This document shows positions 1 to 63,647 of a stretch of 64,000 nucleotides of DNA, in pieces. Under the pieces are notes generated by a model. The model worked only from the letters and a program-made list of their open reading frames with translations. It did not search any database and was not told where the DNA came from. Position 1 is the first letter of the stretch. Each line of letters starts with the position of its first letter. Both the position numbers and the translations under genes were made by a program. The DNA comes from Skermanella pratensis (GTDB lineage: Bacteria > Pseudomonadota > Alphaproteobacteria > Azospirillales > Azospirillaceae). The stretch covers positions 1,970,001-2,034,000 of the forward strand of contig NZ_CP030265.1 of NCBI RefSeq assembly GCF_008843145.1. The letters are read 5' to 3'.

Positions 1-1085
1 TCGTGCTGCAGGACGAGCGGGAGTTCAACGCCAGGATCGTCGGTACCGATCCCAAGACCGACCTGGCGCTCCTGAAGATCGACGGCGTGGGCTCGCTGCC
101 GGCCGTGGCTTGGGGAAACTCGGAGCGGATGCGGATCGGCGACTGGGTGCTGGCGATCGGCAATCCCTTCGGGCTTGGCGGCACCGTCACCGCCGGCATC
201 ATCTCGGCCCGCGCGCGCGACATCGGGGCCGGGCCTTACGACGACTTCCTCCAGACCGACGCGGCGATCAACCGGGGTAATTCCGGCGGCCCCATGTTCA
301 ACATGGCGGGCGAAGTGATCGGGGTGAACACCGCGATCTTCTTGCAGTCGGGCGGCAACATTGGCATCGGCTTCGCCGTCCCGGCGGAGGTCGCCCGGCC
401 GATCATCGCGGAACTGCGGGAGACCGGCAAGGTGACGCGCGGCTGGCTCGGCGTCGCGATCCAGCCGGTCACGCCGGAGATCGCCGAGGCGCTTGGCCTC
501 GATCAGCAGCGTGGCGCCCTGGTCGCGCAGGTGACGCCGGACAGCCCGGCGGCCAAGGCCGGGATCGAGCAGGGGGACGTCATCACCCAGTTCGACGGCC
601 GGCAGCTGGAAGGCCCCCGCGAACTCAGCAGGACGGTTGCCCAGACCGATGTCGGCAAGCAGATCAGCATCACCGTGCTTCGTGACGGAAAGAGCCGGAC
701 CCTGGACACGACCATCACGCAGCTGGAGGAGACCCTGTCGGCCGAGGCGCAGCCGCAGGGCGAGAGCGGCAGCGGTCAGGAAGGCCCGCTCGGGCTGACG
801 CTGGCCCCGGTGTCGCCGGAAATGCGCAAGCGCTTCGACCTGGGTTCCGACGCCAGCGGGGCGGTGGTCGTACAGGTCAAGCCCAACAGCCCGGCGGCGA
901 TGCGGGGCCTGCGTCCAGGCGACCTGATCACCCAGGCGGGCCGTCATAACGTCGATGGACCGAGTGACGTGGCGAACGCGGTCAAGCGGGCGCGCGATGC
1001 CGATCAGGACCATGTGCTGCTGCTGCGTCAGCGGGACGGGAATTCCATCTTCGTGCCGCTGCCGATCAACGGCCAGACAGGCTGA
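1..1085 (+). CDS. Do/DegP-family periplasmic serine protease, 3' part
   Basis: Trypsin-like HtrA protease that degrades misfolded envelope proteins. The reading frame is open at the window edge, so the signal peptide and catalytic His lie upstream. The catalytic Asp is visible in TDLALLKI and the catalytic Ser in GNSGGP (Ser codon at 282-284). Two PDZ domains follow, roughly codons 155-245 and 270-350 of the visible part, each with a typical GL.PGD or GIEQGD ligand-loop motif. This is the usual Do architecture of protease plus two PDZ domains. It ends in TGA and is followed by a strong hairpin. Which HtrA paralogue it is cannot be told from a fragment. Confidence 0.95.
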   Translation, partial: VLQDEREFNARIVGTDPKTDLALLKIDGVGSLPAVAWGNSERMRIGDWVLAIGNPFGLGGTVTAGIISARARDIGAGPYDDFLQTDAAINRGNSGGPMFNMAGEVIGVNTAIFLQSGGNIGIGFAVPAEVARPIIAELRETGKVTRGWLGVAIQPVTPEIAEALGLDQQRGALVAQVTPDSPAAKAGIEQGDVITQFDGRQLEGPRELSRTVAQTDVGKQISITVLRDGKSRTLDTTITQLEETLSAEAQPQGESGSGQEGPLGLTLAPVSPEMRKRFDLGSDASGAVVVQVKPNSPAAMRGLRPGDLITQAGRHNVDGPSDVANAVKRARDADQDHVLLLRQRDGNSIFVPLPINGQTG

Positions 1086-45938: not shown

Positions 45939-48900
45939 TTAGGTGGAGTTCACCGCCCGTGATGCCGATTGGATCCGCTTAAGAGCTTCCTGGGCCGCGT
46001 TGACAACCTCTTGATTAGGGTCCTGAAGAGCGATCTTGAGCGTCGGCACCGCCTCGACCGCCACCGGCCCGATCTCCCCTAGGGCCCAAGCGACGCCCCG
46101 GCGAACCTCCTCATTGGCTTCACTGAACGCAGTGATTAAAACTGACACGGCCTTTTTTGACAGGATCTCGGCCCACGGCTCGGTCTGCGCCAGGGCCCAG
46201 GCGGCGGCCACGCGGACCGTCAGGTCGGCATCGCCCAGCGCGGTGATCAGTGCCGGTACAGCCTCGGCCGCCGCCGGCCCGATTTGCCCCAGGGTCCAGG
46301 CGGCCCCCCAGCGAATCTCCTTGTTGGCATCGCCCAGCGCGGTGATCAGCGCCGGCATCGCCTTGACCGCCGCCGACCCGATTTGCCCCAAGGCCTCGGT
46401 GGCGCTCCGGCGGACTTCCAGATTGGCATTGCCCAGCGCGATGATCAGCGCCGGCACCGCTTCGGCCGTCGCCGGCCCGATACGTCCCAAGGCCTCAGCG
46501 GCGTGCTGGCGGATTTCCAGGTTGGCATCGCCCAATGCAATGATCAGCGCTGGCACCGCCTCGACAGCCGCCGGCCCGATACGTCCCAAGGCCTCGGCGG
46601 CGCTCCAGCGAACTTCCTTGTCGGCATCGCCCAGCGCGGTGATCAGCGCTGGCACCGCTTCGGCCGCCGCCGGCCCAATAAGCCCCAAGGCCTCGGCGGC
46701 GCTCCAGCGAACTTCCTTGTCGGCATCGCCCAGCGCGGTGATCAGCGCAGGTACAGCTTCGGCCGTCGACCCAATCGACCCCAAGGCCTCGGCGGCGCTC
46801 CGGCGGACTTCTATGTCGCCATCGCTGAGGGCGGTGATCAGCGCAGGTACCGCCGCTAGCCCGATACGTCCCAAGGCCTCGGCGGCGCGGTGGCGGACCA
46901 GCCAAGCGGCATCGCCGAGGGCGGTGATCAGCGTCGGCACCGCTTCGGGCGCCGCCGGCCCGATTTGCCCCAGGGCTCCAGCGGCGCTCCGGCGCACCTC
47001 CATATCGGTATCGCCGAGGGCGGTGATCAGCGCCGGCACTGCCTCAGCCGCCGCCGGCCCGATACGCCTCAGGGTCCCGGCGGCGCTCCGGCGCACCTCC
47101 ATATCGGTATCGCCGAGGGCGATGATCAGCGCCGACACCGCCTCAGTAGTCGCCGGCCCAATTTGCCCGAGGGCCCAGGCGGCGCCCCAGCGAATCTCCT
47201 TGTTGGCATTGCCCAACGCGATGATCAGCGCCGGCACCGCCTTGACCGCCGCCGACCCGATACGCCCTAAGGCCTCAGCAGCGCTCCGACAAACCTCCTT
47301 GTCGGCATTGCCCAGCGCGATGATCAGCGCTGGCACCGCTTCGGCCGTCGCCGGCCCGATACGTCCCAGGGCCTCGGTGACGTTCCGGTGGATTTCCAGG
47401 TTGGCATTGCCCAGCGCGGTGATCAGCGCCGGCACCGCTTCGGCCGCCGTCGGCCCGATGCGCCCCAAGACCTCGGCGGCGCTCCGGCGGACCTCTATGT
47501 CGGCATCGCTGAGGGCGGTGATCAGCGCCGGCACCGCCGCCAACCCGATCCGCCTCAGGGCCTCGGCGGCGCTCCGGCGGACCTCTATGTCGGAATCGCT
47601 GAGGGCGGTGATCAGCGCTGGCACCGCCTCGGCCGCCGCCGACCCGATACGTCCCAAGGCCTCGGCGGCGCTCCGGCGGACCTCTATGTCGGCATCGCTG
47701 AGGGCGGTGATCAGCGCTGGCACCACTTCGGCCGCCGCCGGCCCGATGCGCCCCAAGACCTCGGCGGCGTGCTGGCGGATTTCCAGGTTGGCGTTGCCCA
47801 ACGCGGTGATCAGCGCCGGCACCGCTGCCGGTCCGAGTTGCCCCAGGATCTCGGCAGCGCGGTGGCAGACCAGTCGAGCGGCATTGCTAAGGGCGGTGAT
47901 CAGCGCCGGCACTGCCGTTAGCCCGATTTGCCGCAGGGCCTGGGTGGCGCGTTGGCGTATTTCTAGGTTGGCATGGCCCAGCGCGGTAATCAGCGCTGGC
48001 ACCGCCTCGGTTGTCGCTGGTCCGATCTGCCCCAAGGCTTCGGTGGCGCTCCGGCGAACTTCCAGATTGGCATTGCCCAGCGCGGTGATCAGCGCCGGTA
48101 CAGCCTCGGCTGCCGCCGATCCGATTTGCCCCAGGGTTTCAGCGGCACGCTGGCAGATTTCCAAGTTGACATCGCCCAACGCGATGATCAGCGCCGGCAC
48201 CGCCTCGACCGCTGCCGGCCCGATACGCCCCAGGGCTTCGGCGGCGCTCCGGCGAACTTCCATGTCAGCATCACCCAACGCGGTGATCAGTGCTGGCACC
48301 GCTCCGACGGCCGCCGGTCCCATCTGTCCCAAGGCCTTAGCGGCGCTCCGGCGGACTTCCGTGTCGGAATTTCCGAGAGCCCCGAGGGCGGTGATCAACC
48401 TTTGGACTCGCTGCAATTCGTTTCGATTGTAGTCCAGCCACTCGTGCAGTGCCGGCCACTCCGAGATAAGAGCTTCGTGAGCCAGCGTGACGCCAGCACC
48501 CTCAGCAACCAGCAAGCGCCCCTCAACCAACTTATTGATGATCATTCGTGCTTGGTCTACTTTGTCCGGGTCACCCAAAAACATCCGCTGGCGTGTCGGT
48601 GTGCCGGCAGCATCGACGTGGACCAAAGCTTGGAATATTCCCGGCAATGCGGCATCAAGATCTACACCCCAGGTTGTGCTAAGATCTTCTAGGAGTTCAG
48701 CAGCACGGCGACTGATCACACCGCGCAGTCGGCCAAGGGCGTTGTAAGCGTCTATGGTTAGCCGCTGATCAGGGGAGGTCTTCCGGTATAGCTCATCCAG
48801 GCAGAACGCCATCAAAGGAAGCGTCCCTGGATCAGTGCCAGCGTCCTCGAGGACCTCATCTGCCAAGCCATCCTCAAGAACCAGTCCCGCGCGTTCAGCC

Positions 48901-50195
48901 GGCTTGCGGATCATGTCGGCGAGCGCGACTAGCCCGGGCGGCGCCAGTAGGTAAAGTGCCGCGGGAGCTTGAAGCAGCTGGGCGAGATCTGGCAGGACGG
49001 CGCACTGAGGCAGAAAATCCGCCCGCAGCGTAGCCACAACCCTCAGATGCGGCTGGGCGGCGGCATGTGCCAGCAGCGCACCGAAAGACTCACGTTGCAG
49101 GATCGCGGCGTGCGTGAACAGCTCTTCCAGCTGATCCACGAACAGTAGGACCGCACCGCCGGCCGGAGCGACGGCATATTCCGAAATGCGTTGTGGCTCC
49201 TCATTGAGGGCTGTTGCAATCCTGATGGGTGGTTTATGGGCCAGCGCTGGCAGCAAACGGACCAGTCCGTAGGCCAATGCGAGGAAGGGATTGTCGCCGG
49301 CCTCCCCCGGTGTGCAGGTGACCACGCGCCAGTCCTGACTGCCTTCAATAGCACCATCTTGAAGGCGCGGGATCAGGCCGGCGTAGACGAGGGACGATTT
49401 GCCGGTGCCGGAGGCGCCGACCACCGCCAGAAACCGCTGGGCCGGATCGCGCAAACGCGCGATTAGGGCATCGACCTCGCGCCCGCGTCCAAAGAAGATC
49501 GGGGCTTCCTCCAGCGTGAAGGGCCGCAATCCAGGGTAGGGTGAAGTAGGCCAGTCCGGCTCCACCGGCCCAGTCGGTCCCGTATCGCTCTTATCAAGAC
49601 GCTTGCGGAGAATGCGTTTCAGGTCAGAGGCGAGCCGTTCTTTGAAAGCTGTCGGTGTGTCGTAGGGCGTCACGCTTCCTCGGAATGAACCATCCGGTTT
49701 CATGGAAATGCGCTCGCAGAACTGCCCAACCAATTGATATTGCCGCTGCTGCTCCGTCAAGTCCGAGGCCTTTAGACCGACCTTGGGCTCTTCTGTCCGC
49801 GCATAGATGAGGATGTCCGCCTTGCCCTTGCAGGCGTCCTCGTATTCCCATTCGGTCCCGGATAGGTAGGGCTCGCCGTTGGCTTTCTGGAATCTGGTCA
49901 GATCGAGATGTGTCCCGAGCCGGGACCAAAGCACAACGATGACGATGTCGCATTCCGAGGGCTTGGTCTCGAACTGGATCACCGCTTCGTGGGGTGTGAG
50001 ATGGGCTGGCATTGGTGTCGGTGCCGCCGGATCATCCCAGCTCACGATGTCGAACGTCACACGACTGCGCAGGAACGGATCATAGGGCAGTTCTTCTTTA
50101 AGCAGACGGCGAACCAAGGCGCGCTCGTCGGCCACATCGCCGGGCGAAGCGAGAAAGACGCGCAGGTGCTGTGGCGCCGGCTTCGCAGGAAGCAT
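45939..50195 (-). CDS. DUF4062 / STAND NTPase / 25-HEAT-repeat protein
   Basis: 1418 residues. Residues 10-130: DUF4062-like (LRVFLASPGDVADERALVRR, ECDIVIVVLWSRLGT, GTEWEYEDA). Residues 220-600: novel-STAND/NACHT-like NTPase with Walker A GASGTGKSS (260-268) and Walker B VLLFVDQLEELF (349-360), a later RADFLPQ and a winged-helix-like region ending in LAHEALISEWPALHEW. Residues 600-1418: 25 tandem HEAT repeats, mostly 33 residues (VPALITALGDADMEVRRSAA then EALGRIGPAA), several 30. No nuclease, TIR or protease effector is fused. The layout of switch ATPase plus repeat sensor is that of bacterial NLR-like immune proteins. The upstream DUF4231 gene is the likely membrane effector. Confidence 0.85.
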   Translation of the reverse strand: MLPAKPAPQHLRVFLASPGDVADERALVRRLLKEELPYDPFLRSRVTFDIVSWDDPAAPTPMPAHLTPHEAVIQFETKPSECDIVIVVLWSRLGTHLDLTRFQKANGEPYLSGTEWEYEDACKGKADILIYARTEEPKVGLKASDLTEQQRQYQLVGQFCERISMKPDGSFRGSVTPYDTPTAFKERLASDLKRILRKRLDKSDTGPTGPVEPDWPTSPYPGLRPFTLEEAPIFFGRGREVDALIARLRDPAQRFLAVVGASGTGKSSLVYAGLIPRLQDGAIEGSQDWRVVTCTPGEAGDNPFLALAYGLVRLLPALAHKPPIRIATALNEEPQRISEYAVAPAGGAVLLFVDQLEELFTHAAILQRESFGALLAHAAAQPHLRVVATLRADFLPQCAVLPDLAQLLQAPAALYLLAPPGLVALADMIRKPAERAGLVLEDGLADEVLEDAGTDPGTLPLMAFCLDELYRKTSPDQRLTIDAYNALGRLRGVISRRAAELLEDLSTTWGVDLDAALPGIFQALVHVDAAGTPTRQRMFLGDPDKVDQARMIINKLVEGRLLVAEGAGVTLAHEALISEWPALHEWLDYNRNELQRVQRLITALGALGNSDTEVRRSAAKALGQMGPAAVGAVPALITALGDADMEVRRSAAEALGRIGPAAVEAVPALIIALGDVNLEICQRAAETLGQIGSAAAEAVPALITALGNANLEVRRSATEALGQIGPATTEAVPALITALGHANLEIRQRATQALRQIGLTAVPALITALSNAARLVCHRAAEILGQLGPAAVPALITALGNANLEIRQHAAEVLGRIGPAAAEVVPALITALSDADIEVRRSAAEALGRIGSAAAEAVPALITALSDSDIEVRRSAAEALRRIGLAAVPALITALSDADIEVRRSAAEVLGRIGPTAAEAVPALITALGNANLEIHRNVTEALGRIGPATAEAVPALIIALGNADKEVCRSAAEALGRIGSAAVKAVPALIIALGNANKEIRWGAAWALGQIGPATTEAVSALIIALGDTDMEVRRSAAGTLRRIGPAAAEAVPALITALGDTDMEVRRSAAGALGQIGPAAPEAVPTLITALGDAAWLVRHRAAEALGRIGLAAVPALITALSDGDIEVRRSAAEALGSIGSTAEAVPALITALGDADKEVRWSAAEALGLIGPAAAEAVPALITALGDADKEVRWSAAEALGRIGPAAVEAVPALIIALGDANLEIRQHAAEALGRIGPATAEAVPALIIALGNANLEVRRSATEALGQIGSAAVKAMPALITALGDANKEIRWGAAWTLGQIGPAAAEAVPALITALGDADLTVRVAAAWALAQTEPWAEILSKKAVSVLITAFSEANEEVRRGVAWALGEIGPVAVEAVPTLKIALQDPNQEVVNAAQEALKRIQSASRAVNST
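45942..48398 (-). repeat. DNA-level array encoding 25 HEAT repeats
   Basis: Roughly 25 tandem units of about 99 bp (some 90 bp). Neighbours are near-identical at DNA level (for example GCGGTGATCAGCGC recurs in most units) but differ at a small set of codons such as DADMEVRRS, NANLEIRQH and DADKEVRWS. The array also creates long spurious frames on the plus strand. Such homogeneity favours unequal crossing-over or gene conversion. Confidence 0.85.
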
Positions 50196-50372: not shown

Positions 50373-50873
50373 TCAGTCATCGCGAACTGACCCCGCCCCG
50401 GCGCTTAGATCTTTGCTTCTAGTGCCTTCTGACAGTAAAACCGGGCGCGATCCCGCTTTCGCGGCCTGTTCTTGGACCGACACCCACTTTGCATGTTCCT
50501 GTGAGATCAGGCCCTCGATGCGGTCGGCTAGGAGTGCCAAAGGTTTTTCAGCATCCATGTAAGGTCCGGCGCTGGACAGGAACAGATATTTTTCATGCTT
50601 CAGCGTCTCGCAGGTTGAACGATAGGCGATCCAATTCTGCTGATCCTGGCTCAACTGCTGAACGGTCTCCACGATCAGGATGACTAGGCCTAGGACGGCC
50701 GCAACTTTCTCTGGATGTGGGATGTTGAAAACAGGAAGTAGAGGGAGCAAGGCAGCAGCAACGACTTGCACGAGCTTCAGAACCTTATATCGCCTCTGTG
50801 CCGATTGGCTTTTCCGGTCGTACCAGTTGATTTGGTCCTCTAAGCGGTCGAGGATGGGGGTCTGCTCGCTCAT
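50373..50873 (-). CDS. DUF4231/SLATT-like two-helix membrane protein
   Basis: 166 residues from the ATG at 50873 (MSEQTPILDRLEDQINWYDR). The longer frame upstream has no coding character. Two adjacent membrane helices (LKLVQVVAAALLPLLPVF and KVAAVLGLVILIVETVQQL) are followed by a cytosolic helical part with QNWIAYRSTCETLKHEKYLF, the DUF4231 fingerprint. SLATT-type proteins are proposed pore-forming effectors in nucleotide-signal and other conflict systems. It lies 177 bp upstream of the STAND-HEAT gene on the same strand, so an operon is likely. Confidence 0.75.
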   Translation of the reverse strand: MSEQTPILDRLEDQINWYDRKSQSAQRRYKVLKLVQVVAAALLPLLPVFNIPHPEKVAAVLGLVILIVETVQQLSQDQQNWIAYRSTCETLKHEKYLFLSSAGPYMDAEKPLALLADRIEGLISQEHAKWVSVQEQAAKAGSRPVLLSEGTRSKDLSAGAGSVRDD

Positions 50874-51094
50874 GACGTTGATCTCACCATCAGTGTTCGG
50901 ACTGGCCTGAGCTCCAGATATCATCCCACACGGCTGTTGGCTCGAACGCAACCCGTCATCGCGGATCGTCAGCGAAATCCACTGCCGCCGGACCGGCAAT
51001 TCCTTCGATCGTGCCGGCCAGGTGCGCTGACCATAGCCCAGCAGATGGATGATGCGCACCCCGGACTTGGGCCGCCATCAGATGCTGGACCATG

Positions 51095-53043: not shown

Positions 53044-54375
53044 TCATTCATTCGGCAACAATGTCAATCTGTCATCGATAATCCCGACGTGCAGGCGGTA
53101 GTCAATCGATGCGATCGCCTCCACCAGTCGGGCCAGCGAAGCTCCCTTGTAATAGCGGCTCCCCGTCTGCCCTTGCTGCACGTGGCCCATCAGTTCGCTG
53201 ACCTGGATCTCGGGAATCTGGCGATTGAGCAGATGGGTGTCGAAGCTGTGTCTCAGGGAGTACAGGCAAAGCCCCTCCCGCGCCATTCCGACATATTCGA
53301 GGTAGCGGCCGAACCACTCGCCCAGCTTTGCGCCGGATCGAAGGGCTTTGGCCGATTTCAGGCCGGGAAACAGGTCTATCTTCCCCTTAACTTTCTGATC
53401 CGCGTGATAGTCCAGGAAGCCGAGTTCCAACAGAAGCGGATGGATCGGGACGATCCGCTTCGAGGTGCCGGTCTTCACCCGCTTTCCCTTTTCCTCGTCC
53501 GGCATGACCTTGATGCACCAGATGGCAAAGGTAGCCGAGCCATCCTGACCGGCTGGCAGAAAGCGGCGCAGGCGTGCCCAGACCCCGGTCTGCGACCGGA
53601 CATCGATATCCCATTCTGCAAAATGCTCCTCGTCGAACTGCACGGCGACGATGTCTTCGGTAAGCAACTGGGCGGCTTCGCCGAGACGCAGTCCCTGGTG
53701 CGCCATCATGAGCGGAAGCCAGTATTTCGCATCCTTGACGACGTGCTTGCCGCGACGGTGCCGGTGATGGTCACCGGCGCACCCGCTCCAGGCCGGGCTG
53801 GCAAACAATTCGCGCAGTTCGGCGTTCAGGAACGCGTCGCGGTCGTTCCTGGCGGATCGATCGAATTCCTTCACGCCGTATCGCAGCTTCAGGGCGAGCA
53901 GGTCCCGGTTGATCGGTACCTTCTTCGTCTCTGCGAGCCACCGGAGCAGGCCTTTGATTTTATCGAGGTGCTTGTTGATGGTCTTCATGGCCAGCCGGCG
54001 CTCTTTCGCCGACTGCAACTCGTGCCGGAGATTGTCCGGGTCGATCTCTCCCGCTGCTGCCTTCGCCTCGACGAGGGAAACCGCCCGGTCGGAACGTCCA
54101 TCCGCCTTGCGGATCGCCTCGGACGCGGTCATGGCGCGGTACGGACCGCGTCCGAACAGCGACGGCACGCGATGCAGCATCGCCCTGAAGTTTACGAGAT
54201 CCTCCTCGGTGATATCGACCACCTTCCGGTTACCGACAAGGTCCGCGAACAGGTCGCCGGCGACTCGGTAGTTCCGCACCTCCTCCTCGCACAGGAGTGA
54301 CGTCCTGTTGCTGCCCTGGAGGCTTTGCCGCTGTTGGATCCACGATGCCATGGCCTGCGTCACCGTCCATTCCAC
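53044..54375 (-). CDS. Tyrosine integrase, catalytic half
   Basis: 443 residues from GTG at 54375, which has no ribosome site. It contains a core-binding region (about 70-170) and a catalytic domain: MMAHQGLRLGEAAQLL (Arg I), GTSKRIVPIHPLLLE (Lys), YSLRHSFDTHLLNRQI (His-x-x-Arg region; here RHSFD), SELMGHVQQGQTGSRYYKGA (His and Tyr). The N-terminal half lies in another frame at 54360-55229. One extra G in CCGGGAAG near 54400 would join them into one integrase of about 730 residues. Confidence 0.75.
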   Translation of the reverse strand: MEWTVTQAMASWIQQRQSLQGSNRTSLLCEEEVRNYRVAGDLFADLVGNRKVVDITEEDLVNFRAMLHRVPSLFGRGPYRAMTASEAIRKADGRSDRAVSLVEAKAAAGEIDPDNLRHELQSAKERRLAMKTINKHLDKIKGLLRWLAETKKVPINRDLLALKLRYGVKEFDRSARNDRDAFLNAELRELFASPAWSGCAGDHHRHRRGKHVVKDAKYWLPLMMAHQGLRLGEAAQLLTEDIVAVQFDEEHFAEWDIDVRSQTGVWARLRRFLPAGQDGSATFAIWCIKVMPDEEKGKRVKTGTSKRIVPIHPLLLELGFLDYHADQKVKGKIDLFPGLKSAKALRSGAKLGEWFGRYLEYVGMAREGLCLYSLRHSFDTHLLNRQIPEIQVSELMGHVQQGQTGSRYYKGASLARLVEAIASIDYRLHVGIIDDRLTLLPNE

Positions 54376-55229
54376 CGCGGCAGGAGGCGGGTGATGCTTC
54401 CCGGCCGGGGATGAACGGCGTCGCTGACCCTGTCTCGTGAGGGGGCTTGCAGGCTCTGATGCGGGCCTGCCGGCAGGTCCATCGCCGCCAAGGGCAGGGG
54501 AGACAAAGGCGGTTGGGGAGCATGCGGACGGCTCGCGGCGGTCCGGTCGGACACCGTGGCCGAAGCGGTTGCCCGTGGAGCCGAAGCGACAGGATTTTCC
54601 GTGACGGCAAGGCTCCGCGCAGCGGGAGTGCCGCCGATCGTGCCCCCGGATGGCCCGGGCAGCCAGTCCGCGCTATCGTCGTCGTAGGCGCCGGCTTCAC
54701 GCTGGGCGTTGATGCGATGGACTGCCGGCAGGCCGCGCAGTACGAGGCGGGCCAGCACGGTGTGCTCGTCCGTGCCAGTCTCCGGAATGTCCAGGCCGTC
54801 CGCTGCCGCACGCGCCAGGACATCGCGTGCGAGATCCAGGCGGTTGTGACGGATCGCATCCTGTATACCAGAGACGGCGGCGTGTTCAGCCTCGACACGG
54901 CGTGCGACCTCGTCCGGGCCGCGTTCGCCGCCGAGGGCACGGGCGACTTCGGCGCGCTCCAACTCGGCGCGCAGGATCGGGGCGAGGAGGGCGCGCAATC
55001 TCTCGGTATCGACAAGTCCGGCCTGCATGGCATCGCTCAGAAGATCGAGCACGGCGTCCGTCGCGACGCCGAGGCGCCGCGCGCGTTGCCGTGCGGGAGC
55101 CAGGACCTGGGTGCGAAGCGAGATGCGGAGGTCGGCACCGCCGGCTTTCGAAAAGCGCGGGCAGGCGGGAAGAGTGCGGCGCCAGTAGTAGGTCGCGCCG
55201 CGCCGGTAGAGATGGGTGTCCAGTGCCAT
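54360..55229 (-). CDS. DUF6538-type N-terminal half of the same integrase
   Basis: Starts MALDTHLYRRGATYYWRRTL at 55229 with CGGAG upstream. The DUF6538-like DNA-binding region (first 60 or so residues) is followed by a helical part and a Pro/Ser/Ala-rich linker. The frame ends at 54360, overlapping the catalytic half by 16 bp. A shorter relative remains at 26841-27033. Confidence 0.7.
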   Translation of the reverse strand: MALDTHLYRRGATYYWRRTLPACPRFSKAGGADLRISLRTQVLAPARQRARRLGVATDAVLDLLSDAMQAGLVDTERLRALLAPILRAELERAEVARALGGERGPDEVARRVEAEHAAVSGIQDAIRHNRLDLARDVLARAAADGLDIPETGTDEHTVLARLVLRGLPAVHRINAQREAGAYDDDSADWLPGPSGGTIGGTPAARSLAVTENPVASAPRATASATVSDRTAASRPHAPQPPLSPLPLAAMDLPAGPHQSLQAPSRDRVSDAVHPRPGSITRLLPRWNGR

Positions 55230-55341
55230 GGTCCGCTCCGTGGTCCGGAGCGTCGTCGGCGGCACACCCGGACGGCACAGCACGGAAACCGGTGCTTATG
55301 CCGCCTGGAAGTACTGGAAAATCAAGGCTTTGGGAGAGAAG

Positions 55342-55529: not shown

Positions 55530-55841
55530 TTGAGCCTGGACTTGACTGCCGATGAAGTTGCTAAAATGCTTCGCGTAACGCCGCAGTGCGTTCGTCGCTG
55601 GGCAGCGGCATGCAAGCTTCCGGGATACCGCATCCTGGGTGACTCGTGGCGCTTCAAGAAAGATGAGGTGGAAGCGTGGATAGAAACCCAGAGGCCTAAG
55701 CCTCCGAAACCTAAGGAGAAAATTGAATGGCGTCCATCTATCTCCGCAGCTCAGTCTACTGGGGTCGTGCCACCGTCGCAGGGGTCGAGCACCGCAAGTC
55801 TCTTGAAACAGCGTCTCGGCCTGAAGCCGAAAGCCGCCTGA
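55530..55841 (+). CDS. Excisionase-type HTH protein
   Basis: 103 residues from TTG at 55530 preceded by a perfect AGGAGGT. The HTH_17/MerR-like domain covers residues 1-55: LTADEVAKMLRVTPQCVRRW, GYRILGDSWRFKKDEVEAWI. The C-terminus (IEWRPSISAAQSTG...) overlaps the integrase start by 115 bp in another frame. Its position just before the integrase suits a recombination directionality factor. Confidence 0.75.
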   Translation: MSLDLTADEVAKMLRVTPQCVRRWAAACKLPGYRILGDSWRFKKDEVEAWIETQRPKPPKPKEKIEWRPSISAAQSTGVVPPSQGSSTASLLKQRLGLKPKAA

Positions 55842-56809
55842 AGCAGTGGGTCGAGTACTTGAAAAATCCTCAGCCGGTCGCGATTGAACTCCCGGAGCGA
55901 ACATTTGAGTCATTGGCCATGCTGTTCATCGACAAGCACCTGCCGCGGCTGAAGCCGAACAGCATCAAGCGTTACGAGCAGTCGATCCGCCGCCTGATCG
56001 CGCTCTATGAGGGCCGGGACGCGATGAGGTTCACTGCGGCAGCACTGGCCGAGTTTGAGACCGCCCGCAGAGCACAGGGAGTCCAGCCGGCGACCATCCG
56101 TCGTGATCTCGCATGCCTGTCGAGCATGCTGAGCCTGGCACCGGAACTCTGGGGGGATGACGACTTGGTCGTCGCCAACCCGGTGCCGGCTTATTTGAAA
56201 CGACACCGGAAAACTCTCCGGGAAGGAGAGCCGGGCAAGCGCTACCTGACTAAGCATGAAGAGGTCGCGCTACTCGAAGCCGTCAAGGACATTCCGGTGC
56301 TGTGGCAGAACATTGCCGTCGCTATCGACACGGGGCTCCGGAGCATGGAGCAGTTTGCGCTCCGCATCAAAAACGTCGATCTCGTCCGCGAACGCATCAC
56401 TGTTCCCGCCGACGAGGCAAAGAGCCACCTTTCCCGCACTGTTCCACTGCGGAAGCGATCTGTCGAGATTCTGCGGGAAGTGATAGCCGGACGGAAGACG
56501 GGATACGTTTGGACCAATCCGGCGACAGGGAAGCACTACACACGGTTCACACGGGGCTTGGCGGGAGCTGTGAAGCGCGCTGGGGTAGAGCCTATCGTGT
56601 GGCACGACCTGCGCCGCACGTGCGGGTGCCGGCTGCTGCAGGACGACCAGATGGCGCTCGCTGGGGTTAGTAGGTGGCTCGGGCACCAGACTGTCGCGCA
56701 GACCCAGCGGGCCTACGCATTCCTTGAGATTGACAACCTTCATGACGCTATCCGCAGAGATCCCCCGGTCTTGCTAGCAGTCCCCGGTGGGCATGCCAAA
56801 ACGGGGTAA
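55727..56809 (+). CDS. Tyrosine integrase of the island
   Basis: 360 residues. Core-binding domain about 60-160 (ESLAMLFIDKHLPRLKPNSI). Catalytic residues are all visible: AIDTGLRSMEQFALRI (Arg I), VPADEAKSHLSRTVPL (Lys region), VWHDLRRTCGCRLL (His-x-x-Arg), VSRWLGHQTVAQTQRAYAFL (His and Tyr). It lies 172 bp from the right attachment site and should catalyse insertion into the tRNA 3' end. Confidence 0.92.
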   Translation: MASIYLRSSVYWGRATVAGVEHRKSLETASRPEAESRLKQWVEYLKNPQPVAIELPERTFESLAMLFIDKHLPRLKPNSIKRYEQSIRRLIALYEGRDAMRFTAAALAEFETARRAQGVQPATIRRDLACLSSMLSLAPELWGDDDLVVANPVPAYLKRHRKTLREGEPGKRYLTKHEEVALLEAVKDIPVLWQNIAVAIDTGLRSMEQFALRIKNVDLVRERITVPADEAKSHLSRTVPLRKRSVEILREVIAGRKTGYVWTNPATGKHYTRFTRGLAGAVKRAGVEPIVWHDLRRTCGCRLLQDDQMALAGVSRWLGHQTVAQTQRAYAFLEIDNLHDAIRRDPPVLLAVPGGHAKTG

Positions 56810-57756: not shown

Positions 57757-57850
57757 GGCTGGCTAGGGCTGGTGAAAGGTTGCTACCGGGGCTTGCAGGA
57801 GCAGGCAGTTTGTGATTCGGTTTCACTGCGGTGATTTACGGAGGAACAGG

Positions 57851-58917
57851 ATGGTGGCTGTTGCGATCCGGCGAGACATTGCGGCGGGCGACTTGCGACG
57901 GCAGGTTCGCCTGGAGCGGGACGGTCGGGTTGCCAGTCGGCTCCTGGCGCTGGCGGCGGTGCTCGATGGCGTCAGCCGTGAGCAGGCCGCTCGCCTCGGC
58001 GGAATGGATCGGCAGACCCTGCGGGACTGGGTTCACCGCTTCAACGAAGCGGGTGTGGAAGGCCTACGCGACCGTACCCGACCCGGTCGGCCTTGCCTAC
58101 TGGCCGAGGAGTTGCTCCCGGAGTTGGCAGCCTTGATCGCCGACGGTCCGCAGATTGAGCGCGATGGTGTGGTGGAGTATCGCCTGTCGCATATCCGCGA
58201 GCTGTCCCGGCGTCATTTCGGCGCTGACTACAGTCAGGGCGGCATGCACGCTGTGCTGCGTCGGATGGGCTTTTCCTGGCTGAAGCCCCGGCCGATCCAC
58301 CCCAGGACCGACCTGGCTGCCCAGGAGGCGTTTAAAAAAACTTTGCCCAGACGGTGGCGAGCATCCAGGATCAGCATCCCAACGCCGAGCGGGTGGAGGT
58401 CTGGTTCCAGGACGAGGCCAGGGTTGGCCAAAAAGGCTCGCTGACCCATCTGTGGGCACCAACTGGCACGCGGCCGAGGGCGGTGCGTGACCATCGCTTC
58501 AAGTCCGCCTACATCTTCGGCGCGGTGTGCCCGGAGCGGGATACCGGTGTGGCCCTGGTGGTTAGCCGAGCCAGCACCGAGGCGATGAACCTCATGCTCA
58601 CCGAAATCAGCCAGGCAGTCGGCGACACGGCGCACGCCGCCGTGCTGATCGACGGAGCCGGCTGGCACAGCGCAAACGATCTCATGGTGCCGACCAACAT
58701 CACCCTCGTCCCGTTGCCGCCCTACAGCCCAGAGCTCAATGCCATCGAGCGTCTGTGGCAGGTCATGCGAGACACCCTGCTCTCACACCGCCTGTTCACC
58801 GATCTCAACCACATCATCGAGGTCTGCTGCACAACCTGGAATGCTCTCCTTAACCAGCCAGGACGGATCCGATCCACATGCGGCTATGCCTGGGCGGCTC
58901 CGGTCAAAATTTCCTGA
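57851..58917 (+). CDS. IS630-family transposase in two frames joined at an A7 run
   Basis: Frame 1 from the ATG at 57851: an HTH (LDGVSREQAARLGGMDRQTL) and a winged second HTH (LSRRHFGADYSQGGMHAVLR). Frame 2 from about 58341: VEVWFQDEARVGQKGSLTH (first Asp), AAVLIDGAGWHSANDLM (second Asp) and PYSPELNAIERLWQVMRD (Glu). The switch is exactly at TTTAAAAAAAC (A7 at 58334-58340); a -1 slip gives KNFAQTVASIQDQH. Either programmed frameshifting or one missing A would yield a full protein of about 355 residues. Confidence 0.82.
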
Positions 58918-59462
58918 ACTTGGTATTAGGGGATCAATCATTGGTCATGCCATAAATGTTGGAGCAGGCCGATGAACCTGCTCTGGTTCGAAGCGCCTGG
59001 TTCCCTTAAAGGTGCGCTCGTCTTCGGACGCGTGATACTGCATCTTGCATGCCAGCGCCTCCATGGTGCTGGCGATCAGGATGGGCGATGCCCTGCCGGT
59101 TGCGGTGCCTTCCAGGCCAGGGCGATGCCGGCGACTGCCCAGCTGAGCTGCTGCACGAACAGCGCACCGCCGATACCGGCACCACACGCTCCTGATGGAA
59201 GCGCATCGACGGGCGCAGACCGAGGCTGCGGTCGATGCGATCACCGTCAAACGCATCAGACGAAGGCACAATCCAGGCGAGGTTTGCCTTCATCCGACGG
59301 TGTAAGGTCGTTTGACGAAACGGCGCAGCGCGGACCCTTCCTCTTGTGCGCCCAGGCTAATGGGCTCGCGCAAAAGGTAACGAAATTCTTTTGCAACCTT
59401 CAACCAAGAATGCTAAACGCCGCGACCTTCGATACCGAATCACGGTAGCATGCGGGACTGCG
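58918..59462. other. Gap without a recognisable gene
   Basis: Short frames on both strands are Arg/Ser/Cys-rich and match no family I know. It probably holds the IS630 right end and the promoter of the next gene. Confidence 0.4.
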
Positions 59463-62400
59463 ATGATTATTCAGCCTTCAAAAATTGGCGCCTATGTGTC
59501 CCTGGGACATTGCGATCGTTTCCTGCACCTCACGGCTGTCGAGCAAACCAGCGCGGCCGCCGGCAGCCCGGAGCAGCCGGCAGCCGAAGGGGTAACTCGC
59601 GCCGAGCTCCGGGGCCGGGAAACCGAAGCAATGGTCGCGGAACTGCTCGAAGGGAGGGGCTTTGAAAAGCAGGACGGCGGCGGGCTTCGCGACCTGATCA
59701 AGAGCGTGGAGGGAACGGGCCGACCGCGCTACGCGACACAATGTCCCGTCCGCGGGTGCCTCGTGGTGGATGCGGCGGACGTGACCGTTTCTGGCTCGAT
59801 CGACGTCTTGATGGTCGATCGCAACGAAGCGAAGGGCCACATCCGCCTGACCGTGCTCGAATGCAAGAGTTCCGGCCGAATGTGGAGTGCCGCCTTGCTG
59901 CAGACGGCGCTGTACGTCAAGCTCCTACGGGATGACCTTCCGGCGGAGGTGCAGGTTCGGGCGAACATCGTGACCCGCGATCCGGACACGGATCGGGTGT
60001 CGGAGGAGAGCGTGTTCGATGCCGGCTTGCCGGAGCTGGACCTGGAGGTCGGCCTCACCGACGCCATGTCGATCATCCGCCAGCAGATTGAGCTGGCCGG
60101 AGCGGAACTGCCAGCGCCGTATTTTGCCGAAAGATGCCAATTCTGCCCCCATATCGAACGCTGCTTTGCGGAAGCCATCGACGGCCGACTGGATTGGGCG
60201 GTTCTGGGGCTGCCGCCTGCCGAGCGGGACGCCTTGGTGCGGGAGGGCGCTCCCTATGCCGAAGACAACGTCGATCGCGCCAAAGTCAAGGCCGCTTTCC
60301 GCCGTGGTCTGCGCCGAAACAAGTCGCAGCTTCAGCGCCTGTATCGGCTGCGCAGCGCCTATTACGGTGCGGCTGCCGGTCAGGAGCAGCGGCGCGATGA
60401 AGTACTTCCCCGAAGCATCGGCCGCCTCCCCTGTGCTGGACCCAATCCGCTCAAGAAGGTGTTCGTGCGGGTCGTGCCCGATGCGCAACGGCGGCGCATT
60501 GCCGCGCTGGGTGTCCGCGTGCGAGTCGAGCGGTACGACGAGCCGGCGCAGACCCTTATGGACGCGTCTTGGAGCATGTCCAAGGACGACGAGTCGGAGA
60601 GGCAGACGCTGCTCACGATGGCCCGGCACATCGGCGACGTGCTGGCGCCGGATGCGCAAACGGGCAACGTCTGCTTCCATGCCTATTTCTGGTCTGAGGA
60701 CGAATTCATCTTCCTCATCGACCGGCTTTATGCGTGCGCGCAGGAACGCTCCGACGACCCGCTCCTCATGCTGGCTGCCGGTCTGACCGAGCGGGATGCA
60801 CCGGAACTGCATCTGGGCACACGCCTGCCGCGAGTGACCCATCTCCGGAATTATATCCAGCAAAGAACGAATTTGGCCAGCATCGGCGTCTCGCTCCTCG
60901 AGGTTTCCTTCCTGGACTGGGCTGGGCGCACGGACGCCGCTTGGCTGGCGGAATTGCCGGTTCTGGCGTGCTGCCTGGGAGACGGCGAGACGGACTGGCC
61001 GCTGGACGCCGGCACCGTGCGCCAGCGGCTACGCCAGCGCCCGAACTTCTTCGATCGCCTTGACCCAACGATGGTCGAACGCATCCAGGACGACGCCGCT
61101 TTCCGAAAGGCATTCATCGGTGTCTGGTTTAACGCGCTCACGTCCGTCGAAAGGGCCCTGGCGGCGCTCCACGGCACCAACACCATGCCTGCGATCCCTG
61201 TGCACCGGGAGAACCCTGTGCGGGTTCCGCTGGCGGATACCGCGCGTCCTCTCATCGAGGCGGCGCGGCAGTATCTGGAGGGCTCGCAGGACAACGTGCG
61301 CCGCGCGTGGTACGCAAAGCACCTCAACAGCATTGAGGAACTGGTGAGTTCGGGAACGGCGATTGAACTGACCAATCCAGTTTGGGCGGAATACAACGCC
61401 AAGGACGAGAACGACGACCGCCTCTGGCTGGAAGGCGAGACCGACGCGGAGGCGCTAGTCGCGCTGGGAGACGCCACCGGCGGAACTGACGGAGCCCGGG
61501 CGCTACGGCTCAAGGAACTGGGCAGGCAAGCCACCGATGCTCTCGGCAATCTGAAGCTGCGCAAGGACCTTCGGGCCGTTCCGATCACGCACACCCAGAC
61601 CGTACTGACCTCCGAGGACATCGTAGACCAAGGCATCGAACTGACGATTCTGAAGATCGAAGAGCTGCGGCTGGGAGGGCGGGCCGTGGCGAAGGCGCTT
61701 CCTCGCCAGACGCCACGGCAGAATGGCGTGGAGAGCAGGGCACGCGCTTGGCAGGACACCGAGCCGGGCGCACCCCTTTGCCGTGCCGATGGGCAGGCGG
61801 TGAACCGTTTTGTCGTCTTCAAAGACTTCGAGCCGGTCGACCCCAGGGTCCGTGCCGCGCTCGCCAAGTTCGCAGACGTGGACCGCGACACGACGTTGGG
61901 AGCGCTCGACTGGTGGAAATCCGACACACTGCCGGAGGACATTGCGCTGACCGACGCAGAACGGCTGCGCCTTGAGACGACGTTCAAGGCCTACGCCCAC
62001 CTGCGTGAAGCGTGCAGTGACGAGTTCCTCGCTTTCCGGACGGCGCTGGAGCGGACCCGAGATGCAGTTGGTGTCGGCCAAAGCCTGGCGAACCTGGAAG
62101 CGGCTATTGCGGCTACCCTCGTAACCTACGATCCGGATCGTCCCAAGGCGTCCAGGGAATCGACATACGAGCAGACCGCCGCGGATGCCGCGCAACGCAT
62201 CGTGATCGACTTGCTGCCCCGCCGCCTGGGCCTTGTGCAGGGGCCTCCCGGAACGGGGAAGACGGAATTCGCCGCCCTGGCCATTCTCGTCTGGGCGCTG
62301 ATTCAAGGCGAACGCACACCGGAGGATCTTCCTGCCGTCTTCGTGACAGGCGTTTCCCACCAATCGGTTTCGAACGTTCTTCGCCGCTGCGCGGCGGTTG

Positions 62401-63647
62401 CCCCGCTTCTGGCCGGAGCTTGGCGGGCGACGACGCGGCGCGCCGGTGCGGCGATCCGAATTGAACGGTGGTCCGTCGATCCGAAACACACATTGCTCGA
62501 GGCGCCGCTCGCCGGACCACAACGGCGCCTCTCGATCGTCGATTCTCGGATCGACGTCGTTCAGGGCCGGGCTCAGGCAGAATGTTACGACGACGGGCAA
62601 CTGCGTAAGTGGGGGGACATCCTGGAGCAGCTTGCCGTGCGCATCGTCGGATGCGTCACGGCGCAGCTGCCCAACTTGGCCCCAGACGCTCCTATCCTTG
62701 CAAAGCCCTTCCGTTACATGGTCTTTGACGAGGCGAGCCAGACGAAGCTCCAAGACGCCCTCCTCGCGCTACCCCTGCTCGACCATGAGCGTGGACAGGC
62801 GCTCGTGATCGGCGATCACCGGCAGTTGGGTCCTGTGGAGAAGGGCGTCGGCGAGGCCGACCTTCGCTACCTCGTACGCCGCCACCAGCCCTACGGCAGC
62901 TTCTACGACTTCGTTAGCAAGCACGTCCAACCGGTGGCGCTGTCCTACACGTTTCGCCTTCAGGAGGACGCATGGCGGCTGATCGCATCCGTGTACAAGG
63001 ACGATGCGGTGCGGCTTCTCGGGCGTGCACGGGGCGATGCGCCGCATCCCTCCAAAGCATCCGGACTGCTGAGCGACGCTGTGGACTGGGAGGGCGTGTG
63101 CCTGTTGACCTACGATTCGATCCGCTGGCCGGGCGATCAAAAAGTCAACCCGATCGAAGTGGCCATCATTGAGAGGTTGTTCCAGAATGGCTCCAAGGCG
63201 ATCCTGGACCAGACCGCCATTCTCGCCCCGTTCAAGGCGCAAGAGCAGGAACTCATAAAAAACTTTACAAAACAGCGGGTCGGAACGGTCGATTCCATGC
63301 AGGGCTCCGAGCGGCCGACGGTCATTTATTCGGCGACGGGAGCGGCTGCCGCCTTGACGCGCTTTGAGGAGTTCATGATCGACCTGCGGCGTGCCAACGT
63401 TGCGATGTCCCGGTCGAAGAAGCGCCTCATCGTCATCGCGTCCCAGGACCTGCTCAGCTACACGCCATCGGACCCCGAAGCGTTCGAGGTGATGCGGATA
63501 TGGAAGCATCTGCGTCGATACGCGGATAAGCGACTGGACGGTTCGCCATACGACGTCACCGTTACAGATGAGGACGGAAAGATCCGCAGGATCGCAGTGG
63601 AGGCCCTGCAGGTCCGTCATCCGGCGGAGCAGGCAGAGGAAGCGTGA
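59463..63647 (+). CDS. Cas4-like Fe-S nuclease fused to Dna2-like SF1 helicase
   Basis: 1394 residues from the ATG at 59463 (a start 24 codons upstream is possible). N-terminal PD-(D/E)XK nuclease: SIDVLMVD and LTVLECKSSG (Glu-x-Lys near 133-135). Four Cys suited to an Fe-S cluster: C17 and CQFCPHIERC (225, 228, 234). A long middle region follows (about 240-880). C-terminal SF1B helicase: GPPGTGKTE (about 927), FDEASQTKLQDALL (about 1088), IGDHRQLGPV, YTFRLQEDAWRL, VDSMQGSERPTVIY and RRANVAMSRSKKRLIVIAS. This is the TM0106-RecB-like nuclease/AAA_11-AAA_12 helicase arrangement. A defence role is suggested by context only; DNA repair is the alternative. Confidence 0.85.
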   Translation: MIIQPSKIGAYVSLGHCDRFLHLTAVEQTSAAAGSPEQPAAEGVTRAELRGRETEAMVAELLEGRGFEKQDGGGLRDLIKSVEGTGRPRYATQCPVRGCLVVDAADVTVSGSIDVLMVDRNEAKGHIRLTVLECKSSGRMWSAALLQTALYVKLLRDDLPAEVQVRANIVTRDPDTDRVSEESVFDAGLPELDLEVGLTDAMSIIRQQIELAGAELPAPYFAERCQFCPHIERCFAEAIDGRLDWAVLGLPPAERDALVREGAPYAEDNVDRAKVKAAFRRGLRRNKSQLQRLYRLRSAYYGAAAGQEQRRDEVLPRSIGRLPCAGPNPLKKVFVRVVPDAQRRRIAALGVRVRVERYDEPAQTLMDASWSMSKDDESERQTLLTMARHIGDVLAPDAQTGNVCFHAYFWSEDEFIFLIDRLYACAQERSDDPLLMLAAGLTERDAPELHLGTRLPRVTHLRNYIQQRTNLASIGVSLLEVSFLDWAGRTDAAWLAELPVLACCLGDGETDWPLDAGTVRQRLRQRPNFFDRLDPTMVERIQDDAAFRKAFIGVWFNALTSVERALAALHGTNTMPAIPVHRENPVRVPLADTARPLIEAARQYLEGSQDNVRRAWYAKHLNSIEELVSSGTAIELTNPVWAEYNAKDENDDRLWLEGETDAEALVALGDATGGTDGARALRLKELGRQATDALGNLKLRKDLRAVPITHTQTVLTSEDIVDQGIELTILKIEELRLGGRAVAKALPRQTPRQNGVESRARAWQDTEPGAPLCRADGQAVNRFVVFKDFEPVDPRVRAALAKFADVDRDTTLGALDWWKSDTLPEDIALTDAERLRLETTFKAYAHLREACSDEFLAFRTALERTRDAVGVGQSLANLEAAIAATLVTYDPDRPKASRESTYEQTAADAAQRIVIDLLPRRLGLVQGPPGTGKTEFAALAILVWALIQGERTPEDLPAVFVTGVSHQSVSNVLRRCAAVAPLLAGAWRATTRRAGAAIRIERWSVDPKHTLLEAPLAGPQRRLSIVDSRIDVVQGRAQAECYDDGQLRKWGDILEQLAVRIVGCVTAQLPNLAPDAPILAKPFRYMVFDEASQTKLQDALLALPLLDHERGQALVIGDHRQLGPVEKGVGEADLRYLVRRHQPYGSFYDFVSKHVQPVALSYTFRLQEDAWRLIASVYKDDAVRLLGRARGDAPHPSKASGLLSDAVDWEGVCLLTYDSIRWPGDQKVNPIEVAIIERLFQNGSKAILDQTAILAPFKAQEQELIKNFTKQRVGTVDSMQGSERPTVIYSATGAAAALTRFEEFMIDLRRANVAMSRSKKRLIVIASQDLLSYTPSDPEAFEVMRIWKHLRRYADKRLDGSPYDVTVTDEDGKIRRIAVEALQVRHPAEQAEEA

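What the first reader, a model, noticed from the sequence alone, without database searches (positions are those of the whole stretch)
59463..63647. Single-gene Fe-S nuclease/SF1 helicase in an accessory segment
A Cas4-like nuclease with four cluster-type Cys is fused through a 640-residue uncharacterised middle to a Dna2-like helicase. Single-protein nuclease-helicases such as Nhi are anti-phage factors, and this one sits next to a defence island and an XRE-type remnant of another possible defence gene.
Basis: inference. Interest (0 to 1): 0.55.

Follow-up and report, generated by a model that had tools for sequence, protein, structure and literature searches.

The report
Lone nuclease-helicase in a defence island
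This large single gene encodes a DNA-cutting enzyme fused to a DNA-unwinding motor, belongs to a rare family scattered across bacteria and salt-loving archaea, and most likely helps destroy invading virus or plasmid DNA, though nobody has yet tested that.

Summary
Window 59463-63647 (+) is one intact 1394-aa frame: a Cas4/AddB-like 4-Cys PD-(D/E)XK nuclease joined to an SF1B UPF1/Dna2-like helicase. The "uncharacterised middle" is mostly explained: residues about 328-574 fold like a DnaQ/RNase T exonuclease whose motif-I D-x-E is absent in 47 of 47 family rows, and residues from about 588 on match the UPF1/IGHMBP2/Dna2 helicase fold. The protein is a divergent member of a rare family (63 of 1724 genomes in five samples), distantly related to the TM0106 RecB-nuclease family but separate from it. 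It is not housekeeping: in its GTDB family only this genome of 82 has a full-length copy, and the genome has its own AddB. Relatives lie beside R-M genes, pAgo (Piwi), CBASS-type E1-E2, TGT/PLD or Cas12k genes; here an Hma (helicase-methylase-ATPase) locus starts 413 nt downstream. Best reading: a stand-alone DNA-degrading defence protein. No function is shown, no fixed partner was found, the window copy sits on a very long branch, and the neighbouring HmaB is split between frames. New variant of a known kind.

The parts
59463..63647 (+). whole gene, 1394 aa nuclease-helicase (ATG start; a TTG at 59391 would add 24 aa)
   Evidence: family alignment
59463..60191 (+). Cas4/AddB-like PD-(D/E)XK nuclease with four cluster Cys (residues 1-243)
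   Evidence: PDDEXK_1 21.5 bits; Cas4 SSO0001 4ic1 Z 10.6 (model 1-249), Dna2 5eax Z 8.1 (model 1-243), Cas4/Cas1/Cas2 7mi4 Z 11.9 (model 1..528)
59511..59513 (+). C17, first cluster cysteine
   Evidence: C in 45 of 46 relatives
59802..59804 (+). D114, nuclease motif II Asp
   Evidence: D in 46 of 46 relatives
59859..59867 (+). E133-x-K135, nuclease motif III
   Evidence: E/D and K in 46 of 46 relatives
59901..59915 (+). Q147-x3-Y151 motif
   Evidence: 46 of 46 relatives
60135..60164 (+). C225, C228, C234, remaining cluster cysteines
   Evidence: each C in 45 of 46 relatives
60438..61184 (+). DnaQ/RNase T-like exonuclease fold lacking the motif-I D-x-E (residues 326-574), probable pseudo-exonuclease
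   Evidence: RNase T 3ngy Z 12.7, rmsd 3.6, 164 aligned; D-x-E in 0 of 47
61224..62162 (+). stalk and beta-rich region leading into the helicase (residues about 588-900)
   Evidence: match to IGHMBP2/UPF1/Dna2 starts at model residues 13-18, i.e. about residue 588; pLDDT mostly 30-60 in much of it
62160..63557 (+). SF1B UPF1/Dna2-like helicase core (residues about 900-1365)
   Evidence: AAA_11/AAA_30/AAA_12; IGHMBP2 4b3g Z 21.9, UPF1 2gk6 Z 21.6, Dna2 5ean Z 19.2
62241..62264 (+). Walker A GPPGTGKT (residues 927-934)
62727..62738 (+). Walker B / motif II DEAS (residues 1089-1092)

Best explanation
A stand-alone, DNA-degrading defence protein. Proposed action: the UPF1/Dna2-like motor loads on exposed single-stranded or end-containing DNA of an invader (for example phage replication or injection intermediates), translocates along it, and the Cas4-like nuclease at the other end of the chain cuts the strand. 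The inactive DnaQ-like module between them probably binds a 3' end or ssDNA, or a DNA-bound protein, and gates the nuclease. Shown here: the domains, conserved catalytic and cluster residues, loss of the exonuclease motif I, rarity, and neighbourhoods. Inferred: DNA as substrate, polarity, trigger, the Fe-S cluster itself, and the defence role.
For: Nuclease and helicase active-site residues are kept although identity to the window is only about 17-25%. Patchy distribution: 63 of 1724 genomes in five samples, 1 of 82 full-length in its GTDB family; AddB is present separately. Neighbours: Hma locus 413 nt downstream (HmaA 1566 bits); SLATT and nSTAND-HEAT genes upstream; in relatives Cas12k (870 bits) and E1-E2 (473 bits), SacI-family REase and dcm, restriction endonucleases, Piwi, TGT plus PLD. 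Twenty neighbourhoods (117 proteins) hit 157 PADLOC models against 41 for 120 proteins from 20 control stretches of the same genomes. C5 MTases of one family lie near 4 loci, Piwi near 3, TGT near 4 stretches (two of them one record), none of these in the 20 control stretches (57 focal stretches).
Against: No assay. PADLOC counts are numbers of models, not proteins, and overlapping models inflate them. Two of 11 annotated plasmid loci show no defence gene. Chloroflexota and cyanobacterial members each form one clade and the haloarchaeal ones need only two changes, so transfer between phyla is limited. The window copy has a very long branch (3.51) and its Hma neighbour has a split HmaB and a partial HmaC match, so the island may be decaying. 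A role in plasmid or replicon maintenance is not excluded.
Confidence: 0.6

Rival explanations
1. A repair or replicon-maintenance nuclease-helicase (Dna2/AddAB-like end processing) carried by plasmids and islands for their own DNA metabolism, not for defence.
For: Fold match to Dna2 in both halves; 10 plasmid records match a relative's middle domain; one plasmid locus lies beside thymidylate synthase, DHFR and a DNA polymerase, another near primase genes and directly before a metallophosphoesterase and AAA ATPase pair.
Against: Restriction, pAgo, CBASS-type and Cas12k neighbours recur; host AddB is present; no constant replication partner.
Confidence: 0.22
2. An auxiliary effector of the adjacent Hma (DUF499/BREX-related) system or of whichever modification system it sits beside, rather than an independent system.
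For: HmaA begins 413 nt downstream on the same strand; C5 MTases of one family lie near 4 of the 11 nearest-clade members; auxiliary nucleases near BREX and DUF499 systems are described in PMC12839542 (passages seen).
Against: HmaB and HmaC have no match in any other focal stretch and HmaA only weak helicase matches in two; apart from the gene itself no neighbour cluster spans more than 6 of the 50 stretches clustered.
Confidence: 0.12
3. A decaying or repurposed copy without present activity in this genome.
For: Longest branch of the 47-row tree (3.51); insertions of its own in the middle; split HmaB and broken IS630 nearby.
Against: Full-length frame with all nuclease, Cys and helicase motif residues kept.
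Confidence: 0.06

Closest known systems
TM0106 family RecB-like putative nuclease with C-terminal helicase (TIGR03491)
   Same: Same order: RecB/Cas4-like nuclease, RNase H/DnaQ-like region, SF1 helicase; profile comparison prob 99, E 3e-18 over window residues 3-427
   Different: Window has no TIGR03491 hit at E<=1; five relatives score 22-32 bits against a cut-off of 97.45; motif-I D-x-E is invariant in the 10 TM0106-type rows (D341, E343) and absent in 47 of 47 rows here; separate clade, SH-aLRT 98
Dna2 nuclease-helicase (eukaryotic)
   Same: Four-Cys PD-(D/E)XK nuclease N-terminal to a UPF1-type SF1B helicase; Z 8.1 and 19.2
   Different: No DnaQ-like insertion in Dna2 (recalled); accessory here, essential there (recalled)
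Nhi, nuclease-helicase immunity
   Same: One protein with nuclease and helicase, proposed to act on phage DNA (passages in PMC10732053 and PMC12904381)
   Different: No Nhi model among the PADLOC hits at E<=0.01; Nhi's nuclease family was not compared here
Mokosh MkoA/MkoC
   Same: Helicase region matches MkoA (94 bits) and MkoC (65 bits)
   Different: Match confined to the helicase (residues 859-1339); no kinase or PLD domain found in this protein
Hma system and Hma-embedded candidates (HEC)
   Same: Directly precedes an Hma locus on the same strand
   Different: Lies outside the Hma genes, not embedded between them; no other focal stretch carries HmaB or HmaC
Argonaute-associated Cas4-family protein ACE1
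   Same: Nuclease fold match Z 8.1 (9iac); some relatives lie beside Piwi genes
   Different: The ACE1 chain has 268 residues and so no room for a helicase; Piwi was found near only 3 of 57 focal stretches

Membership tests
TM0106 family (TIGR03491) | score above the curated cut-off 97.45 | tested here: not met
   no hit for the window protein at E<=1; relatives 22.2-32.3 bits
TM0106 family (TIGR03491) | homologous collinear nuclease and RNase H-like domains | tested here: met
   hhalign prob 99, E 3.1e-18, 385 columns
TM0106 family (TIGR03491) | intact DEDD motif I (D-x-E) | tested here: not met
   0 of 47 family rows
Cas4 / four-Cys PD-(D/E)XK nucleases | catalytic D, (D/E)xK, QxxxY and four cluster Cys | tested here: met
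Cas4 / four-Cys PD-(D/E)XK nucleases | TIGR00372 (CRISPR Cas4) cut-off 65 | tested here: not met
   no hit for the window protein at E<=1; five relatives 11.7-18.6 bits
UPF1/Dna2-like SF1B helicases | motifs I-VI and UPF1-type fold | tested here: met
Nhi | match to Nhi profile and its nuclease type | tested here: inconclusive
   no Nhi model among the PADLOC hits; whether that library holds one was not checked
Mokosh | full-length MkoA or MkoC architecture | tested here: not met
   helicase part only; no kinase or PLD domain
Hma | being HmaA, HmaB or HmaC | tested here: not met
   no Hma model among its hits
anti-phage defence system | measured protection against phage | not testable with these tools
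   needs phage assays

The most novel reading that the evidence does not exclude
An unrecognised family of self-contained defence enzymes, spread over bacteria and haloarchaea and carried even by a Cas12k transposon, in which a dead DnaQ-like exonuclease has become the sensor: it grips the 3' end or ssDNA of foreign replication intermediates and licenses the Cas4-like nuclease while the UPF1/Dna2-type motor feeds the strand.
Probability: 0.3. Interest if true: 0.65.

Novelty: new variant of a known kind. Interest (0 to 1): 0.48.

Why it matters
If it is a defence system, it is a one-gene, portable DNA-degrading module found in both bacteria and archaea that the PADLOC, Pfam, NCBIfam and PHROG libraries used here see only in part. 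It would add a natural example of a dead proofreading-type exonuclease reused next to a live nuclease, and would help explain why large genes annotated only as AAA domain-containing proteins recur beside pAgo, R-M and Cas12k loci.

Tried and rejected
Close relatives were first sought with the window protein alone: genome contigs gave none, viral contigs none, phage records none. Only an alignment of five distant relatives opened the family, and of its 80 loci most matched in the helicase only. The identical length (1418 aa) of the ORFs at 45939-50195 (-) and 59391-63647 (+) is chance: the first is an nSTAND-HEAT protein. A fixed partner gene was sought by clustering the neighbours of 50 stretches: none recurs in more than 6. 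Cas12k/TnsB/TnsC/TniQ genes like those of L017 were sought in the other stretches: none found, so the transposon cargo is a single case. An insertion-site comparison with relatives was not attempted. Foldseek alone gave no PDB hit at E<=0.001; fold statements rest on VIA-align 2, a second look at Foldseek's candidates, on models with mean pLDDT 63-64. Paper searches for a description of this family found none; the library holds open-licence PMC papers only, so this is no proof of absence.
Full report
What is there. The frame 59463-63647 (+) encodes 1394 aa without an internal stop. Pfam gives AAA_12, AAA_11 and AAA_30 above their cut-offs and PDDEXK_1 just below (21.5 against 22 bits). PADLOC gives MkoA (94 bits, helicase part) and weak Cas4 (16 bits); NCBIfam gives only helicase-region hits far below cut-off; PHROGs gives phrog_25411 over the helicase; the PDB sequence search gives UPF1/NAM7, IGHMBP2 (SMUBP-2), SEN1 and Dna2 over the helicase.

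The family. tblastn on plasmids found matches in 31 records, none covering 80% of the query; four that I fetched proved full-length on alignment: Chlorohelix, Haladaptatus, Halorubrum and Salinirubellus. Profiles of the three modules showed six full-length relatives among the 96 loci held at that time, the window's own set aside (L011-L014, L017, L020), plus L018 with a broken frame. The middle module was then used as probe: Pseudomonadota 2 of 398 genomes, own included; phylum of Aphanothece 6 of 339; phylum of Hymenobacter 2 of 345, one of them a weak hit at E 3.7e-4; phylum of an uncultured Chloroflexi bacterium 24 of 350; class of the haloarchaeon G1514 (Salinarchaeum) 29 of 292: 63 of 1724, seeds included; and 0 of 10 further genomes that had given only helicase hits. 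Of the 73 loci examined, the middle-module hits carry the nuclease in the same frame except L115 (weak), L133, L140 and L141 (cut at the stretch's edge), L170, and the second pieces of frames that are broken within the module (L137, L139, L167, L168). Nuclease plus middle and helicase lie in two separate, neighbouring or overlapping frames in five haloarchaeal loci (L144, L145, L147, L148, L149).

Catalytic residues. In an alignment of the window with 46 relatives, D114, K135, Q147 and Y151 are kept in 46 of 46, position 133 is E (23) or D (23), and each of the four Cys is kept in 45 of 46. Helicase K933 is kept in 44 of 46 (2 gaps), D1089, E1090, D1118 and Q1121 in 42 of 46 (4 gaps). The gaps were not followed row by row; several rows (for example L018, L178, L179) end before the helicase.

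The middle. The model of residues 1-910 (35-row alignment; mean pLDDT 63, pTM 0.60; blocks at 320-440 mostly 75-90) matches Cas4-type nucleases over the first 250 residues (4ic1 Z 10.6; 7mi4 Z 11.9 with a longer range) and RNase T over 328-574 (3ngy Z 12.7, rmsd 3.6, 164 aligned), with TREX1/2, DNA polymerase exonucleases and a DinG close behind. Motif I D-x-E is kept in 0 of 47 rows, whereas the 10 TM0106-type rows have D341 and E343 invariant. Profile comparison with the TM0106 type gives prob 99, E 3.1e-18, over window residues 3-427. The model of residues 575-1394 (38 rows; mean pLDDT 63.6) matches IGHMBP2 (Z 21.9), UPF1 (Z 21.6) and Dna2 (Z 19.2), beginning at about residue 588; the beta-rich part, about residues 634-785, has low pLDDT. 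So only about residues 245-327 remain without a fold assignment, and the parts modelled at low confidence should be read with care.

Relationships. With eight TM0106-type and two other proteins added, the 24 family rows used are one clade (SH-aLRT 98) with the window inside, next to the cyanobacterial, Hymenobacter, G443 and two haloarchaeal members (95). In the 47-row tree Chloroflexota (14 rows, which includes L011 and L020) and Cyanobacteria (6 rows) each form one clade and the haloarchaea (24 rows) need two changes; the window's branch is 3.51 long and its highest identity 23%. Limited mixing between phyla speaks against rampant transfer across phyla, and the long branch makes the window's exact place unsure.

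Not housekeeping. Of 82 genomes of the GTDB family (own included), 8 match at E<=0.001, but only the window's own is full-length; the other seven match only over 87-275 residues, nearly all within the helicase. The genome holds one copy and a separate AddB (1049.5 bits, cut-off 486.5).

Neighbourhood. Left of the gene: IS630-type transposase in two frames (57812-58917), tyrosine recombinases (53044-54375, 55727-56809; 54360-55283 carries a DUF6538 domain), SLATT gene (50373-51059), nSTAND1-HEAT protein (45939-50195). Right, beyond the window: HmaA (1181 aa, 1566 bits) from 413 nt after the stop codon, HmaB in two overlapping frames (558 and 528 bits), HmaC with a match to 2-696 of 941 (733 bits). 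Hma was named in PMC8565338 (passages seen); PMC12988326 says that several Hma-embedded candidates have demonstrated antiviral activity (passages seen); PMC12839542 refers to an experimental study of the HmaA helicase and places Hma among DUF499-centred BREX-related systems (passages seen).

Neighbourhoods of relatives. L017 (Aphanothece): Cas12k 870 bits; TniQ-, TnsC- and TnsB-like frames were recognised by eye. L018 (Hymenobacter): C5 MTase whose end overlaps the gene's start, E1-E2 473 bits. L012: SacI-family REase and dcm. L109: C5 MTase. Of 11 annotated plasmid loci (L011-L014, L232-L238), I count seven with clear defence annotation (L012, L013, L233, L234, L235, L236, L238), two ambiguous (L014, L232) and two without (L011, L237); this is my reading of the product names; L012 and L238 are the same plasmid, where one 20-kb control stretch shows none. 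PADLOC on 117 neighbour proteins of 20 loci: 157 models hit; on 120 proteins from 20 control stretches of the same 20 genomes: 41 models hit. The sets were three frames of 110-1200 aa on each side where available. Pfam models hit were 79 against 141, as expected of less-annotated accessory DNA. Only the first 25 families were listed each time, so proteins cannot be counted. The control set also had hits (mad3, AriA, AbiLi, GajA-like). The focal loci L191-L211, fetched, were not put through PADLOC.

Recurrent neighbours. In 57 focal stretches (overlaps and same-record pairs included) against 20 controls, blast found C5 MTases of one family in L012, L013, L018 and L109; Piwi in L203, L235 and L236; TGT in L184, L188 and L211/L238; HmaA-like helicase in L196 and L203; and an HsdR-N-like hit outside its own locus in a control only (L227). 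No partner is constant, which favours a self-sufficient protein.

Mechanism. Shown: domains, active-site conservation, loss of the exonuclease motif, rarity, context. Inferred: an ssDNA-loading motor feeding a Cas4-like nuclease, the inactive DnaQ-like module as sensor or gate. Related logic in print: phage SSB as trigger of Nhi, Hna, Hachiman and AbpAB (PMC10732053, PMC12904381, passages seen); UPF1-like helicases in CoCoNuT systems (PMC11090510, passages seen).

Verdict. A real, divergent member of a rare nuclease-helicase family, probably a single-gene defence system: new variant of a known kind; defence role about 0.6.

Noticed in passing
window 45939-50195 (-) and 50373-51059 (-): nSTAND1 NTPase followed by a long array of HEAT repeats, beside a SLATT-domain gene; looks like a STAND-type defence pair.
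   Followed up: partly
L097:1061-11246 (genome 2034061-2044246, just after the window): Hma locus: HmaA intact (1566 bits), HmaB split in two overlapping frames, HmaC matching only 2-696 of 941 positions.
   Followed up: partly
window 57812-58917 (+): IS630-type transposase in two overlapping frames between the integrases and the nuclease-helicase gene.
   Followed up: no
L017:70-11765: In Aphanothece hegewaldii the family member lies between a Cas12k gene (870 bits) and TniQ/TnsC/TnsB-like frames (by eye): apparently cargo of a type V-K CRISPR-associated transposon.
   Followed up: partly
L144, L145, L147, L148, L149: Five haloarchaeal loci have nuclease plus middle in one frame and the helicase in the next: apparently a natural two-gene form.
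   Followed up: no
L203, L235, L236: Family members beside or near Piwi (pAgo) genes in haloarchaea.
   Followed up: partly
L238 (Haladaptatus plasmid), L184, L188: Family members near tRNA-guanine transglycosylase genes (with PLD and DEAD helicase in L238), suggestive of Dpd-type DNA modification loci.
   Followed up: no
L012 and L238: One Haladaptatus plasmid carries two distant paralogues of the family, each in a different defence-like neighbourhood.
   Followed up: partly
L097:11775-13049 (-): Dynamin-like helical domain protein (PF18709) after the Hma locus, next to a DDE transposase.
   Followed up: no
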